A DNA stretch of 64,000 bases, from NCBI RefSeq assembly GCF_005222915.1, contig NZ_STFX01000026.1, positions 27,792-91,791 of the forward strand, in the 5' to 3' direction. How positions within the stretch are numbered: position 1 is the first letter of the stretch; each line of letters opens with the position of its first letter. The position numbers were made by a program, and so were the translations under genes. The notes below the pieces were generated by a model. That model made no database searches and was not told where the DNA came from. It was given only the letters and a program-made list of their open reading frames with translations. Shown in pieces: positions 34,799 to 40,005 of the stretch. The stretch comes from Rhizobium sp. FKL33. Lineage in GTDB: Bacteria > Pseudomonadota > Alphaproteobacteria > Rhizobiales > Rhizobiaceae.

Positions 34799-35812
34799 TC
34801 AAGCGGCCTTGCGCGCGTCCGCCGGAAAGACGAGGCCATAGCGCACCTCGCTTTGCGAGACGCTATATTCCGCCCTGCCGTTGACGGAAGCGGGAACCAC
34901 ACGCTCCAATATCGCCGTTCCTAGACGCCGAACCGGTATGCCGGCGTCCTGGCCGGCCCTGCGGTGAGCCGGATCCAGCGGTTCGCGCCAGGATACGCTG
35001 ACGAAGTCGCGTCCGTCGCGCTCCTGCATGGCGATGGTCACGACGATCGTCTGACCGGCCGGCAGGAAACTGCCGAAATTGATGGCGTTGATCAGCAACT
35101 CATGGAAGGCGAGGCCGAGATGCATGGTCACATTCGGCGACAGAAGCAGGTTTTCCCCTTCGAAGACAATCAGTTGCTGGCCATTGGGAATATAGGCCGA
35201 GACCTGCTGCTCGAGCAGTTCATGGGCAAAGGCGCCGCGCCATCCTGAGTCCGTGACAAGATCCTGCGACCGGGACAGAGAAAAAATCCGCCCTCTCAGC
35301 TTCTGCACATAGGCTTCGATGGAATCGGTATATTGCGAGGTCTGCGTAACGATGCTCTGGATGATCGCCAGGAGGTTTTTGGACCGGTGGCTCACGTCCC
35401 GCAGCAGCGATTGCAGAACCTTTTCGCGACGCCGATCCTCGCCGCGATCGATGATCGTGGTGATGAACTGAATCTGCCCGCCATGGCCGCTGAACGCCAG
35501 GACGCGAAACTCGAAAACGCCGCCGTTTTCCAGCGTCACTTCGAGAATTTCCGTTTGACGGGTCTCGAGCGCGCGCGACTTGGCGTCCGTCAAGCGACCG
35601 CCGATCTCGGCCCCGAACACAGAGCGATCATCGGGCGCATCGGACTGTTTCAGGCCCCAGTTGTCGGGAAGACCCGTGACGCAGAGATAATTGAAATCGC
35701 GGTCCTGCAGGATAAGGCTGGCGTTCATGTCGAGCAAGGCCGTAATGAAGAACGGGCCAAGCTCTCCATCGTTGAGATCCTTGGCATGCCAAAGGAATCG
35801 CCGCACCTTCAC
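34799..35812 (-). CDS. Cytoplasmic HWE/HisKA_2-type sensor histidine kinase next to phyR
   Basis: A 337-residue soluble kinase. N-terminal PAS-like sensor (about 15-130), then the phosphorylation helix with the HWE/HisKA_2 signature (DVSHRSKNLLAIIQSIV; H about 139), and the ATPase domain with the N-box FHELLINAINFGSF. No membrane segment, so it reads an internal signal. It lies 85 bases downstream of phyR on the same strand. Kinases of this family are the known activators of PhyR, so a PhyK role is likely but inferred. Confidence 0.88.
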   Translation of the reverse strand: MKVRRFLWHAKDLNDGELGPFFITALLDMNASLILQDRDFNYLCVTGLPDNWGLKQSDAPDDRSVFGAEIGGRLTDAKSRALETRQTEILEVTLENGGVFEFRVLAFSGHGGQIQFITTIIDRGEDRRREKVLQSLLRDVSHRSKNLLAIIQSIVTQTSQYTDSIEAYVQKLRGRIFSLSRSQDLVTDSGWRGAFAHELLEQQVSAYIPNGQQLIVFEGENLLLSPNVTMHLGLAFHELLINAINFGSFLPAGQTIVVTIAMQERDGRDFVSVSWREPLDPAHRRAGQDAGIPVRRLGTAILERVVPASVNGRAEYSVSQSEVRYGLVFPADARKAA

Positions 35813-35897: not shown

Positions 35898-36704
35898 TCA
35901 GGCAGACATCGCCTGATACGCCTTTTCGCCTTCATTGAAGAAAAGCGCCTGGCTGATCAATGCCTTCAACATGTCCGGATTGTAAGGCTTGGTGACAAGG
36001 AACGTAGGCTCGGCCCGTTCGCCCGTCAGAAGCCGCTCCGGGAACGCCGTGATGAAAATCACCGGCACGCTGGCGACCTTGAGAATGTCGTTGATCGCGT
36101 CGATGCCAGAGCTGCCATCGGCGAGATGAATGTCAGCGAGAATCATGCCCGGATTGCTGCGGCGATAGAGATCCAGCGCCTCGGAATGGGTGCGTGCGAT
36201 GCCGCTGACGCTGTGACCGAGATCGAGAACGATATGCTCGATATCGAGCGCGATCAAAGGCTCGTCCTCGATGATCATGATTTCCGTGGTGATCTGACGC
36301 GAGATTTCCTGGGTCGCCTCATCGATCAGGCGCTTCACGTCCTCGATGCCGACAGCGAGAATTTCGGCGGCTTCGGAGAAGGAAAAGCCTTCCACGGACA
36401 CCAGCAGGAACGCGTGCCGGGCCTGCGTCGGCACGGCGGAGAGATTGGCGACCGCCTTCTTCTCCCAGGCGAAGGGCGAAACGGCCAGCGGCACGTCGAC
36501 CTGGGCCGATTTCAGAATCCGAACGAAGAGCTTGTACAGCGCCACGCGGTCGGAGGACGCTTCCGGGAATATGCTGAGATCAGCGATCAGCGCCTCGAGC
36601 GTCGCGACGACGAAAGCGTCGCCAGAGGTCTGGGACCCCGTGATCGCGCGCGAGTAACGGCGCAGGAACGGCAAATGGGCGGCCACGCGCTCGGTCAAGG
36701 TCAT
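35898..36704 (-). CDS. phyR: PhyR, general stress response anti-anti-sigma regulator
   Basis: A 268-residue two-domain protein. The sigma-factor-like N-terminal part (about 1-135) includes the decoy region-4 helices (SFSEAAEILAVGIEDVKRLI). A receiver domain follows (about 140-258) with E146-D147-E148, phospho-acceptor D191 (ILADIHLADG) and the K in TKPYNP. When phosphorylated, PhyR binds NepR and frees EcfG. The operon start has a GGAAC-N16-CATT site 43 bases upstream. The kinase gene follows downstream and nepR-ecfG lie 2.5 kb away. Confidence 0.96.
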   Translation of the reverse strand: MTLTERVAAHLPFLRRYSRAITGSQTSGDAFVVATLEALIADLSIFPEASSDRVALYKLFVRILKSAQVDVPLAVSPFAWEKKAVANLSAVPTQARHAFLLVSVEGFSFSEAAEILAVGIEDVKRLIDEATQEISRQITTEIMIIEDEPLIALDIEHIVLDLGHSVSGIARTHSEALDLYRRSNPGMILADIHLADGSSGIDAINDILKVASVPVIFITAFPERLLTGERAEPTFLVTKPYNPDMLKALISQALFFNEGEKAYQAMSA

Positions 36705-37559: not shown

Positions 37560-37616
37560 GTTGTCATCCCTTCACTTCTCAAGAACCGCGCGGCCTTGGC
37601 CGCTCCTGCTCCGGAA

Positions 37617-37641
37617 AATGCACGGAGGCGAGAAAGGTTCC
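37617..37641 (-). promoter_or_regulatory. EcfG-type promoter of the DUF883 operon
   Basis: On the minus strand GGAAC, 16 bases beginning CTTTC, then CATT followed by TT. It is nearly the same arrangement as the phyR site. It lies directly after the terminator-like end of the candidate small RNA. Confidence 0.6.
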
Positions 37642-37642
37642 G

Positions 37643-37692
37643 CAAAATAAGAAGGAGAGAACCATTCCGGCGGGAGGAAGGGTTCTCTCCTT
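37643..37692 (-). terminator. Terminator-like hairpin ending the candidate small RNA
   Basis: A perfect 12-bp stem, AAGGAGAGAACC with GGTTCTCTCCTT (37652-37663 and 37681-37692), has a 17-base loop and is followed on the minus strand by CTTATTTTG. The U-tract is interrupted, so efficiency is uncertain. Confidence 0.6.
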
Positions 37693-37777
37693 TACGCGTC
37701 TGGCGCCTTCGGGGGGATGAAGGGGCGGATCCGGCGCCAGCTTCCGAATGAGGAGGAGGGGGCTCCGCATTCGACAC
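37643..37777 (-). ncRNA. Candidate EcfG-controlled small RNA with three C-rich hairpin loops
   Basis: A perfect GGAAC-N16-CGTT site (37784-37808) points into about 135 bases without a credible gene. Three stem-loops follow on the minus strand. The first is 37745-37773, a 6-bp stem with a loop holding CCCCCTCCTCC. The second is 37700-37740, an 8-bp stem CTGGCGCC/GGCGCCAG with CCCC and CCCCCC in the loop. The third is 37652-37692, a 12-bp stem whose loop holds CTTCCTCCCG. A T-rich tail (CTTATTTTG) comes right after the third. Exposed CCTCC loops are complementary to Shine-Dalgarno sequences. GsrN of Caulobacter is a sigma-T-dependent RNA with a C-rich loop, and rhizobial/Rhodobacter families with CCUCCUCCC loops are known. 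Homology to any of these is unproven. The ends are estimated from the promoter and terminator. Confidence 0.6.
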
Positions 37778-37783
37778 CGGCAT

Positions 37784-37808
37784 AACGCTGGGTGTAGGAT
37801 TTGGTTCC
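37784..37808 (-). promoter_or_regulatory. EcfG-type promoter of the candidate small RNA
   Basis: On the minus strand GGAAC, 16 bases, CGTT: an exact match to the EcfG consensus. No protein gene starts within 220 bases downstream; the predicted start point is near 37777. Confidence 0.65.
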
Positions 37809-39232: not shown

Positions 39233-39442
39233 ATGAATAATGATGAAACGAACAGAATCGGGGATCCCGGCGTGCCGGGCCCGTTCGGGGAGATTCCGAA
39301 GAAACTCAAGGAATATTACGACTCCCTGCAAGATGAAGCCATTCCGCCCCGTTTTCTCGATCTGCTGGAGCAGTTGGATCAGGCCGAGCGCCTGCACGCC
39401 GGCAAGAAGCAGTCCATCCTGACCGAGGAAAGCGGAACATGA
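39233..39442 (+). CDS. nepR: NepR, anti-sigma factor of EcfG
   Basis: A 69-residue protein. The NepR helical core covers about 20-60 (EIPKKLKEYYDSLQDEAIPP, then RFLDLLEQLDQAE). NepR holds EcfG inactive until phosphorylated PhyR removes it. The start at 39233 gives the usual short N-terminal tail; the open frame extends further upstream through the promoter and is rejected there. Its stop overlaps the ecfG start (ATGA), the classical anti-sigma/sigma pairing. Confidence 0.93.
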   Translation: MNNDETNRIGDPGVPGPFGEIPKKLKEYYDSLQDEAIPPRFLDLLEQLDQAERLHAGKKQSILTEESGT

Positions 39443-40005
39443 CGCAAGACGAAGACAGCATCGAGAGAGATTTCAAGCGTACGATGCTCGCCTGCCTCGG
39501 CAGCTTGCGTGCATTCGGCGTTTCTCTCACCGGTCGCCACGATCGCGCCGACGACCTCGTTCAGGACACGATCATGAAGGCCTGGGCGAAGAAGAGCTCT
39601 TTCGAACCCGGCACCAATATGAAGGCCTGGCTTTTCACCATCCTTCGCAACGAGTTCTACAGCCAGATCCGCAAGAGCGGCCGCGAGATCCAGGATTCCG
39701 ACGGCTTCTACACCGAGCAACTGTCGACCCATCCCGGTCAGTATGGCGCTCTCGACCTGCAGGACTTCAAGGCTGCGCTGGAAAAACTGCCCGACGACCA
39801 GCGCGAAGCGATCATCCTGATCGGCGCTTCCGGTTTCTCCTATGAAGAAGCCGCTGAAATCTGCCAGTGCGCGATCGGCACCATCAAGAGTCGCGTCAAC
39901 CGCGCCCGGAACCGACTGGCCGAATTGCTTGCGGTCGAAGGTGACCGTGAATATGGACCGGATTCCAGAGCGCTCGCCGTGACAGGCCGCACTTTCGTCG
40001 GCTGA
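39439..40005 (+). CDS. ecfG: General stress response sigma factor EcfG
   Basis: A 188-residue ECF sigma factor. Region 2 (about 10-80) contains RADDLVQDTIMKAWAKKSSF and the -10-reading WLFTILRNEFYSQIRK. Region 4 (about 105-160) contains LPDDQREAIILIGASGFSYE, then EAAEICQCAIGTIKSRVNRA. Placement after nepR and near phyR fixes it as EcfG (RpoE2/SigT type). It is followed by a strong terminator. Confidence 0.95.
   Translation: MTQDEDSIERDFKRTMLACLGSLRAFGVSLTGRHDRADDLVQDTIMKAWAKKSSFEPGTNMKAWLFTILRNEFYSQIRKSGREIQDSDGFYTEQLSTHPGQYGALDLQDFKAALEKLPDDQREAIILIGASGFSYEEAAEICQCAIGTIKSRVNRARNRLAELLAVEGDREYGPDSRALAVTGRTFVG

What the first reader, a model, noticed from the sequence alone, without database searches (positions are those of the whole stretch)
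37643..37808. Candidate EcfG-dependent small RNA with C-rich, anti-Shine-Dalgarno-like loops
An exact GGAAC-N16-CGTT promoter faces a gene-free stretch that can fold into three consecutive hairpins (37745-37773, 37700-37740, 37652-37692). All three loops are C-rich (CCCCCTCCTCC, CCCCTTC plus CCCCCC, CTTCCTCCC). The last stem is 12 bp, perfect, and is followed by a T-rich tail. The next gene (DUF883) has its own promoter right after that. This is what a stress-induced trans-acting RNA that blocks ribosome sites would look like. GsrN of Caulobacter is a known sigma-T-dependent RNA with a C-rich loop, but this one lies inside the phyR/nepR/ecfG locus itself and may be a different RNA.
Basis: partly seen in the sequence, partly recalled or inferred. 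Interest (0 to 1): 0.82.

Follow-up and report, generated by a model that had tools for sequence, protein, structure and literature searches.

The report
Conserved small RNA in stress locus
Between the genes that switch on the general stress response of a Rhizobium-like bacterium lies a strongly conserved stretch that is predicted to be made into a small RNA under stress, likely a relocated relative of a known rhizobial stress RNA, which would tune other genes by pairing its C-rich loops with their messages.

Summary
A GGAAC-N16-CGTT site (37808-37784, minus) faces three hairpins with C-rich loops and a 12-bp terminator. Among the three closest genomes the RNA is 94-96% identical, against 59-68% at fourfold codon sites of neighbouring genes. 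Over seven genomes of the genus 15 of 36 pairs carry changes on both sides. Promoter plus three hairpins is clear in 8 of 9 genomes of the genus, between ecfG and phyR; the ninth is doubtful. There is no conserved reading frame and no Rfam family at its cut-off.

A new kind of RNA is not supported. Rhizobium etli ReC64 is a proven EcfG-dependent RNA beside phyR-tcrY (PMC3892343), and GsrN-like RNAs were predicted at this locus in Rhizobiaceae (PMC5869019). A covariance model trained only on the window's genus matched 9 of 394 family genomes: six of the genus and three of one other genus, where the RNA sits at the ReC64 position. So this is likely a relocated ReC64/GsrN-like RNA. It is not one of the multicopy CCUCCUCCC (ar14-like) RNAs. 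Transcription, EcfG dependence and targets are untested.

The parts
37784..37808 (-). EcfG-type promoter GGAAC-N16-CGTT of the RNA
   Evidence: exact match; a site of this type lies at the same place in the genus: exact CGTT form in 5 of 9 genomes, CATT or TGTT in 3, an AGAAC variant in 1
37643..37778 (-). predicted non-coding RNA, about 130 nt
   Evidence: 94-96% identity among three genomes; covariation; start inferred from promoter spacing, end from the terminator; no transcript data
37745..37773 (-). hairpin 1, loop CCCCCUC
   Evidence: fold; 9 of 11 pairs with changes on both sides
37700..37740 (-). hairpin 2, loop with CCCCUUC and CCCCCC
   Evidence: fold; 41 of 41 bases identical in three genomes; 4 of 8 pairs with changes on both sides over seven genomes
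37652..37692 (-). hairpin 3, intrinsic terminator with 12-bp stem
   Evidence: fold; pattern unique in the genome; 13 of 17 pairs never vary in seven genomes
37616..37641 (-). second EcfG-like site, for the next gene
   Evidence: a separate site follows the terminator in 8 of 9 genus genomes
   Evidence: open frame; no Pfam match; conserved in L008 and L009
35898..36704 (-). phyR
   Evidence: PhyR_sigma2, PhyR_sigma-like, Response_reg
34799..35812 (-). HWE histidine kinase behind phyR
   Evidence: HWE_HK
39233..39442 (+). nepR
   Evidence: NepR PF18557
39439..40005 (+). ecfG
   Evidence: Sigma70_r2 and r4; named by its place beside nepR and phyR

Best explanation
The stretch 37778-37643 on the minus strand is likely transcribed under stress from the EcfG-type promoter at 37808-37784 as a non-coding RNA of about 130 nt, is likely a relocated ortholog of the ReC64/GsrN-like RNA of Rhizobiaceae, and would act in trans by pairing its exposed C-rich loops with G-rich leaders and ribosome sites of messenger RNAs. 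Shown here: the promoter match, the three hairpins, the conservation, the compensatory changes, the place between ecfG and phyR, and the structural match to RNAs at the ReC64 position in another genus. Inferred: transcription, EcfG dependence, help from an RNA chaperone such as Hfq, and pairing with targets. Open: whether pairing represses (as an anti-Shine-Dalgarno) or activates (as GsrN does on katG).
For: Exact promoter and specific filter. RNA more conserved than fourfold codon sites (94-96% against 59-68%). Compensatory changes: 15 of 36 pairs, covariation 0.380 against 0.118, 0 of 500 shuffles. Clear in 8 of 9 genus genomes, between ecfG and phyR. Model R3, trained on seven genus RNAs, matched 9 of 394 family genomes at E 0.01; the three outside the genus (38-46 bits) all lie downstream of phyR and kinase on the other strand, with an EcfG-type site at their start. 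ReC64 at that place is EcfG1-dependent (PMC3892343 section 21). GsrN-like RNAs with a C-rich 5' loop were predicted at this locus in Rhizobiaceae (PMC5869019 section 14).
Against: No expression data. The alignment for one search was fitted to a model built from four of its seven rows. Direct links to the RNAs at the ReC64 position in Rhizobium and Sinorhizobium are weak: R2 (Neorhizobium type) meets the window only out of register at E 0.013 and none of those RNAs at E 1; R1 meets the N. galegae RNA at 26 bits but R3 only at 16 bits. R1 and R3 also score RNAs with repeated CUCCUCCC loops at 21-33 bits, so low scores are not specific. In the g83 genome G337 the promoter overlaps the first bases of the match. 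No conserved target: katG leaders of 8 genomes give no shared site.
Confidence: 0.7

Rival explanations
1. The hairpins are a 5' leader with a conditional terminator (attenuator) of the gene behind it, not a free-standing RNA.
For: The RNA and the next gene have the same direction, and the terminator could be read through.
Against: A separate EcfG-like site follows the terminator in 8 of 9 genus genomes, G007 being the exception. The next reading frame differs in G006 and G001 from that in the window. In the three g83 genomes the RNA lies convergent to the kinase gene instead.
Confidence: 0.1
2. It is an EcfG-driven RNA of this locus that arose independently of ReC64/GsrN and only converged on C-rich loops.
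For: Weak or absent direct model matches to the RNAs at the ReC64 position in Rhizobium and Sinorhizobium; different place and direction.
Against: R3 matches in three genomes of genus g83 at the ReC64 position. The filter finds the RNA in one place or the other, never both, in 18 loci, plus one Breoghania locus with a third place.
Confidence: 0.2
3. It is a member of the multicopy anti-Shine-Dalgarno RNAs with CCUCCUCCC loops (ar14, SmelA075, cuckoo).
For: Three hairpins with loops that complement Shine-Dalgarno sequences; R1 and R3 score such RNAs at 21-33 bits.
Against: ar14 score 15.7 bits against a cut-off of 58.8; none of the three loops holds CCUCCUCCC; R3 finds one copy in the genome, apart from its antisense echo; the genome has five separate clusters of repeated CUCCUCCC motifs elsewhere.
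Confidence: 0.04
4. The stretch encodes a small protein.
For: An ATG-led frame of 63, 68 and 127 codons is open in G000, G002 and G003.
Against: Only 8 bases of predicted transcript precede the ATG; the C-termini differ; the other six genomes have no ATG-led frame there, only unlike GTG- or TTG-led ones; stems covary.
Confidence: 0.02

Closest known systems
ReC64 of Rhizobium etli (EcfG1-dependent ncRNA, 88 nt; PMC3892343 section 21, PMC2881028 passages)
   Same: Single RNA at the phyR locus behind an EcfG promoter. RNAs at the matching place in Neorhizobium, Sinorhizobium and other Rhizobium loci also show three hairpins and C-rich loops.
   Different: ReC64 lies downstream of phyR-tcrY; this RNA lies between ecfG and phyR in the direction of phyR. 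The ReC64 sequence itself was in no call.
GsrN of Caulobacter crescentus (PMC5869019)
   Same: Promoter of the same sigma-factor type and an exposed C-rich loop; most gsrN homologs of Caulobacteraceae lie near the same locus (section 14).
   Different: About 100 nt with one C-rich 5' loop; acts on katG, for which no conserved site was found here. Sequence comparison with GsrN was not made.
ar14 / SmelA075-SmelA099 RNAs (Rfam RF02344; PMC3927594 section 21)
   Same: Several hairpins with loops complementary to Shine-Dalgarno sequences, linked to stress.
   Different: CCUCCUCCC in each loop and several copies per genome; this RNA has neither and is far below the ar14 cut-off. That ar14 and SmelA075 are one group is recalled, and rests on the shared loop motif.

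Membership tests
ReC64/GsrN-like RNA of the Rhizobiaceae stress locus | near-consensus EcfG site directly upstream | tested here: met
   exact GGAAC-N16-CGTT, 30 bases before the predicted start
ReC64/GsrN-like RNA of the Rhizobiaceae stress locus | close to ecfG, nepR and phyR | tested here: met
   between ecfG and phyR in the window and in the other eight genus genomes
ReC64/GsrN-like RNA of the Rhizobiaceae stress locus | exposed C-rich loop in the 5' part | tested here: met
   hairpin 1 loop CCCCCUC
ReC64/GsrN-like RNA of the Rhizobiaceae stress locus | homology in sequence and structure | tested here: inconclusive
   R3 joins it to the RNAs at the ReC64 position in genus g83; direct match to Rhizobium and Sinorhizobium RNAs weak or absent
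ReC64/GsrN-like RNA of the Rhizobiaceae stress locus | stress-dependent transcript lost without EcfG | not testable with these tools
   no expression data for this organism
GsrN (Caulobacteraceae) | BLASTn similarity to GsrN | not tested
   GsrN sequence not in hand; the paper reports BLASTn hits in Caulobacteraceae only
GsrN (Caulobacteraceae) | pairing of the C-rich loop with the katG leader | tested here: not met
   no shared complementary site in katG leaders of 8 genus genomes; the ninth, G008, has a split gene and was not examined
ar14 / SmelA075 RNAs | CCUCCUCCC in each loop | tested here: not met
   0 of 3 loops (sequence, folds); ar14 score 15.7 against 58.8
ar14 / SmelA075 RNAs | several copies per genome | tested here: not met
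   one copy of this RNA in G000, apart from its antisense echo, at E 0.01

The most novel reading that the evidence does not exclude
The RNA closes a post-transcriptional feedback loop on its own master switch: its C-rich loops pair with the G-rich ribosome site of phyR, whose product frees EcfG, so that the stress response limits itself. The RNA complements the phyR ribosome site by 6-8 nt in 8 of 9 genus genomes, from hairpin 2 in the window's group and mostly from hairpin 1 in the others. phyR ranks high among leaders: 16 of 117 other leaders pair at least as well, and it is the best in 4 of 9 genomes; against it, in G008 5 of 7 other leaders are as good.
Probability: 0.15. Interest if true: 0.65.

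Novelty: new member of a known kind. Interest (0 to 1): 0.42.

Why it matters
An EcfG-driven RNA of the stress locus is proven in R. etli and predicted in other Rhizobiaceae (PMC3892343, PMC5869019), but the papers seen here give a function only for Caulobacter GsrN, and Rfam has no family that matches at its cut-off. The window adds a genus-wide set with compensatory changes, a covariance model and a link between two places in the locus, so that a family can be defined and shared targets sought.

Tried and rejected
Coding reading: rejected, no conserved frame. Leader or attenuator: disfavoured. ar14/cuckoo membership: rejected. katG as conserved target: no support. cheB as target: loop 3 matches the cheB ribosome site over 12 nt in G000, but 8 nt or less in the other genomes; only a lead. 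Reciprocal model R2 (six RNAs of Neorhizobium, Pseudorhizobium and Rhizobium sp. FY34): an out-of-register hit only. Plasmid collection, distant mode: no match. MAFFT with RNAalifold on 13 RNAs at the ReC64 position: badly aligned, 10 pairs, not used for the covariation claim. The same on four genus RNAs misplaced the L010 terminator by one column; the count replaced it.

Papers: PMC5869019 section 14 and passages; PMC3892343 section 21 and passages; PMC3927594 section 21 and passages; PMC7143759, PMC3616915 and PMC2881028 passages only. The cuckoo paper PMC4615179 is not held; what I say of that name is recalled. Other papers were seen only in search listings.

Full report
What is there. On the minus strand, GGAACCAAATCCTACACCCAGCGTT at 37808-37784 is an exact GGAAC-N16-CGTT site. 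The sequence behind it folds alone into three hairpins (z -4.46, 0 of 200 shuffles as stable; z -4.17). The third hairpin is a terminator with a perfect 12-bp stem, four inner pairs and the tail CUUAUUUU. A second EcfG-like site at 37641-37616 precedes the next gene. The surroundings are the general stress response locus: phyR 35898-36704, a HWE kinase 34799-35812, nepR 39233-39442 and ecfG 39439-40005.

Is it more than chance. The exact motif occurs 60 times in the genome against 52 for its reversed control, so the motif alone is weak. The combination is specific: the filter 'EcfG-like site, then terminator, with at least two C-rich hairpin loops' passes only this site of 31 in the window, 0 of 74 in 28 other stretches of the same genome, 15 of 707 in 80 phyR loci of relatives, and 1 of 1513 decoys, which is the same RNA again. 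On 85 loci (window, 80 named loci, 4 genus stretches) 19 pass: seven upstream of phyR on its strand, eleven downstream of phyR on the other strand, and one (Breoghania) 3 kb downstream on the strand of phyR; 66 loci, many of them Devosia, show none. Three more RNAs (L014, L038, L138) were seen by eye or fold but missed by this filter.

Conservation. Among the window, Rhizobium sp. G21 (L008) and Rhizobium sp. SG_E_25_P2 (L009) the RNA is 94-96% identical, and hairpin 2 is 41 of 41 in each pair. Fourfold codon positions of phyR and the next gene are 59-68% identical, the leader of the divergent gene 44-52%, the promoter stretch 68-84%, and the leader of the next gene 78-82%. In the nine genomes of the genus, blastn finds the stretch in four and model R1, built from those four, finds three more at E 2e-5 or better. 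G007 has an exact promoter and three hairpins (fold z -6.72), though R1 and R3 score it poorly (15 and 17 bits). G001 has an AGAAC variant of the promoter and no significant fold (z -0.15), with 23-26 bits.

Covariation. On seven genus RNAs, 96.3% of 241 cells pair, 15 of 36 pairs have changes on both sides, and the covariation score is 0.380 against 0.118 in shuffles (0 of 500). Sliding the partners drops pairing to 49-53%. The alignment was fitted to R1, built from four of the seven rows, which favours it. But each of these RNAs folded alone also gives three hairpins, with unlike stems in hairpin 1 and C-rich loops. Hairpin 1 carries most changes (9 of 11 pairs), hairpin 2 four of 8, the terminator two of 17.

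Family. Rfam has no match at its cut-offs for the RNA of the window or for the RNAs in six relatives' loci (L015, L023, L035, L198, L045, L137). R3, trained on the seven genus RNAs, matched 9 of 394 family genomes at E 0.01: six of the genus and three of one other genus, g83; G001 and G007 were searched and did not match. In all three g83 genomes the RNA lies downstream of phyR and kinase on the opposite strand, with an EcfG-type site at its start; in G090 1.4 kb separate it from the kinase, and in G337 the promoter overlaps the first bases of the match. That is the place described for ReC64, 'downstream of the phyRtcrY locus' (PMC3892343 section 21). In the window only 29 bases lie between the kinase and the next gene. 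In six loci mapped for comparison (L012, L015, L023, L025, L035, L038) the RNA is at the ReC64 place, and ecfG and phyR are divergent with overlapping promoters. One RNA per locus in one of two places fits a relocation. Against it: direct matches to the Rhizobium and Sinorhizobium RNAs are weak or absent, and R1 and R3 also score RNAs with repeated CUCCUCCC loops at 21-33 bits, of which L100 is an ar14 by Rfam.

Mechanism. ReC64 starts at an EcfG promoter by 5' RACE, and its reporter needs EcfG1. GsrN of Caulobacter pairs its C-rich loop with the katG leader, raises katG translation, and is not seen at full length without Hfq (PMC5869019 passages). By analogy the window RNA would be made when PhyR frees EcfG, and would pair by its C-rich loops with G-rich leaders. 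The loops complement Shine-Dalgarno sequences in general: in the window, leaders pair somewhat better than coding interiors (mean -9.1 against -7.7 kcal/mol, n 50 and 150). No single target stands out. phyR ranks high (16 of 117 other leaders as good or better over nine genomes, but 5 of 7 in G008); cheB has a 12-nt match in G000 only; katG has no shared site.

Known or new. The kind is known: an EcfG-driven RNA of the stress locus (ReC64; GsrN-like predictions in PMC5869019 section 14). The genus-wide set, its covariation and its second place were not met in the searches made, which cover open-access papers only.

Noticed in passing
window 37692-37652; L137, L138, L139, L010, L031, L045, L054: The terminator arms AAGGAGAGA / UCUCUCCUU barely change over seven genus genomes while hairpins 1 and 2 covary, and recur in the RNAs of Breoghania and Ahrensia; the pattern is unique in G000. 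The 3' arm complements a Shine-Dalgarno sequence. Reason unknown.
   Followed up: partly
G000 contigs C15, C38 (two clusters), C52, C55: Five clusters of repeated CUCCUCCC motifs that look like ar14/SmelA075-type RNAs; not checked against Rfam.
   Followed up: no
window 26558-26547, minus: The ribosome site of cheB holds a 12-nt perfect complement to loop 3 of the RNA (GGCGGGAGGAAG); 8 nt or less in the other genus genomes.
   Followed up: partly
window 36771, 37641, 37808 (minus), 39168 (plus), 43213 (minus): Five EcfG-like sites within 7 kb, before phyR, the next gene, the RNA, nepR-ecfG and a CHASE3 histidine kinase: the locus seems to feed itself throughout.
   Followed up: no
L045 10042-10146, L054 10091-10198, L031 8108-8211: Likely related RNAs behind exact or near-exact EcfG-type sites 3-5 kb downstream of phyR in Ahrensia kielensis, Ahrensia marina and Breoghania (41.5, 28.8 and 28.8 bits).
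   Followed up: partly
G005:C23:67451-68255 (in L138): phyR of G005 matches in two pieces in different frames; the genome is 84% complete, so a sequencing error is possible.
   Followed up: no
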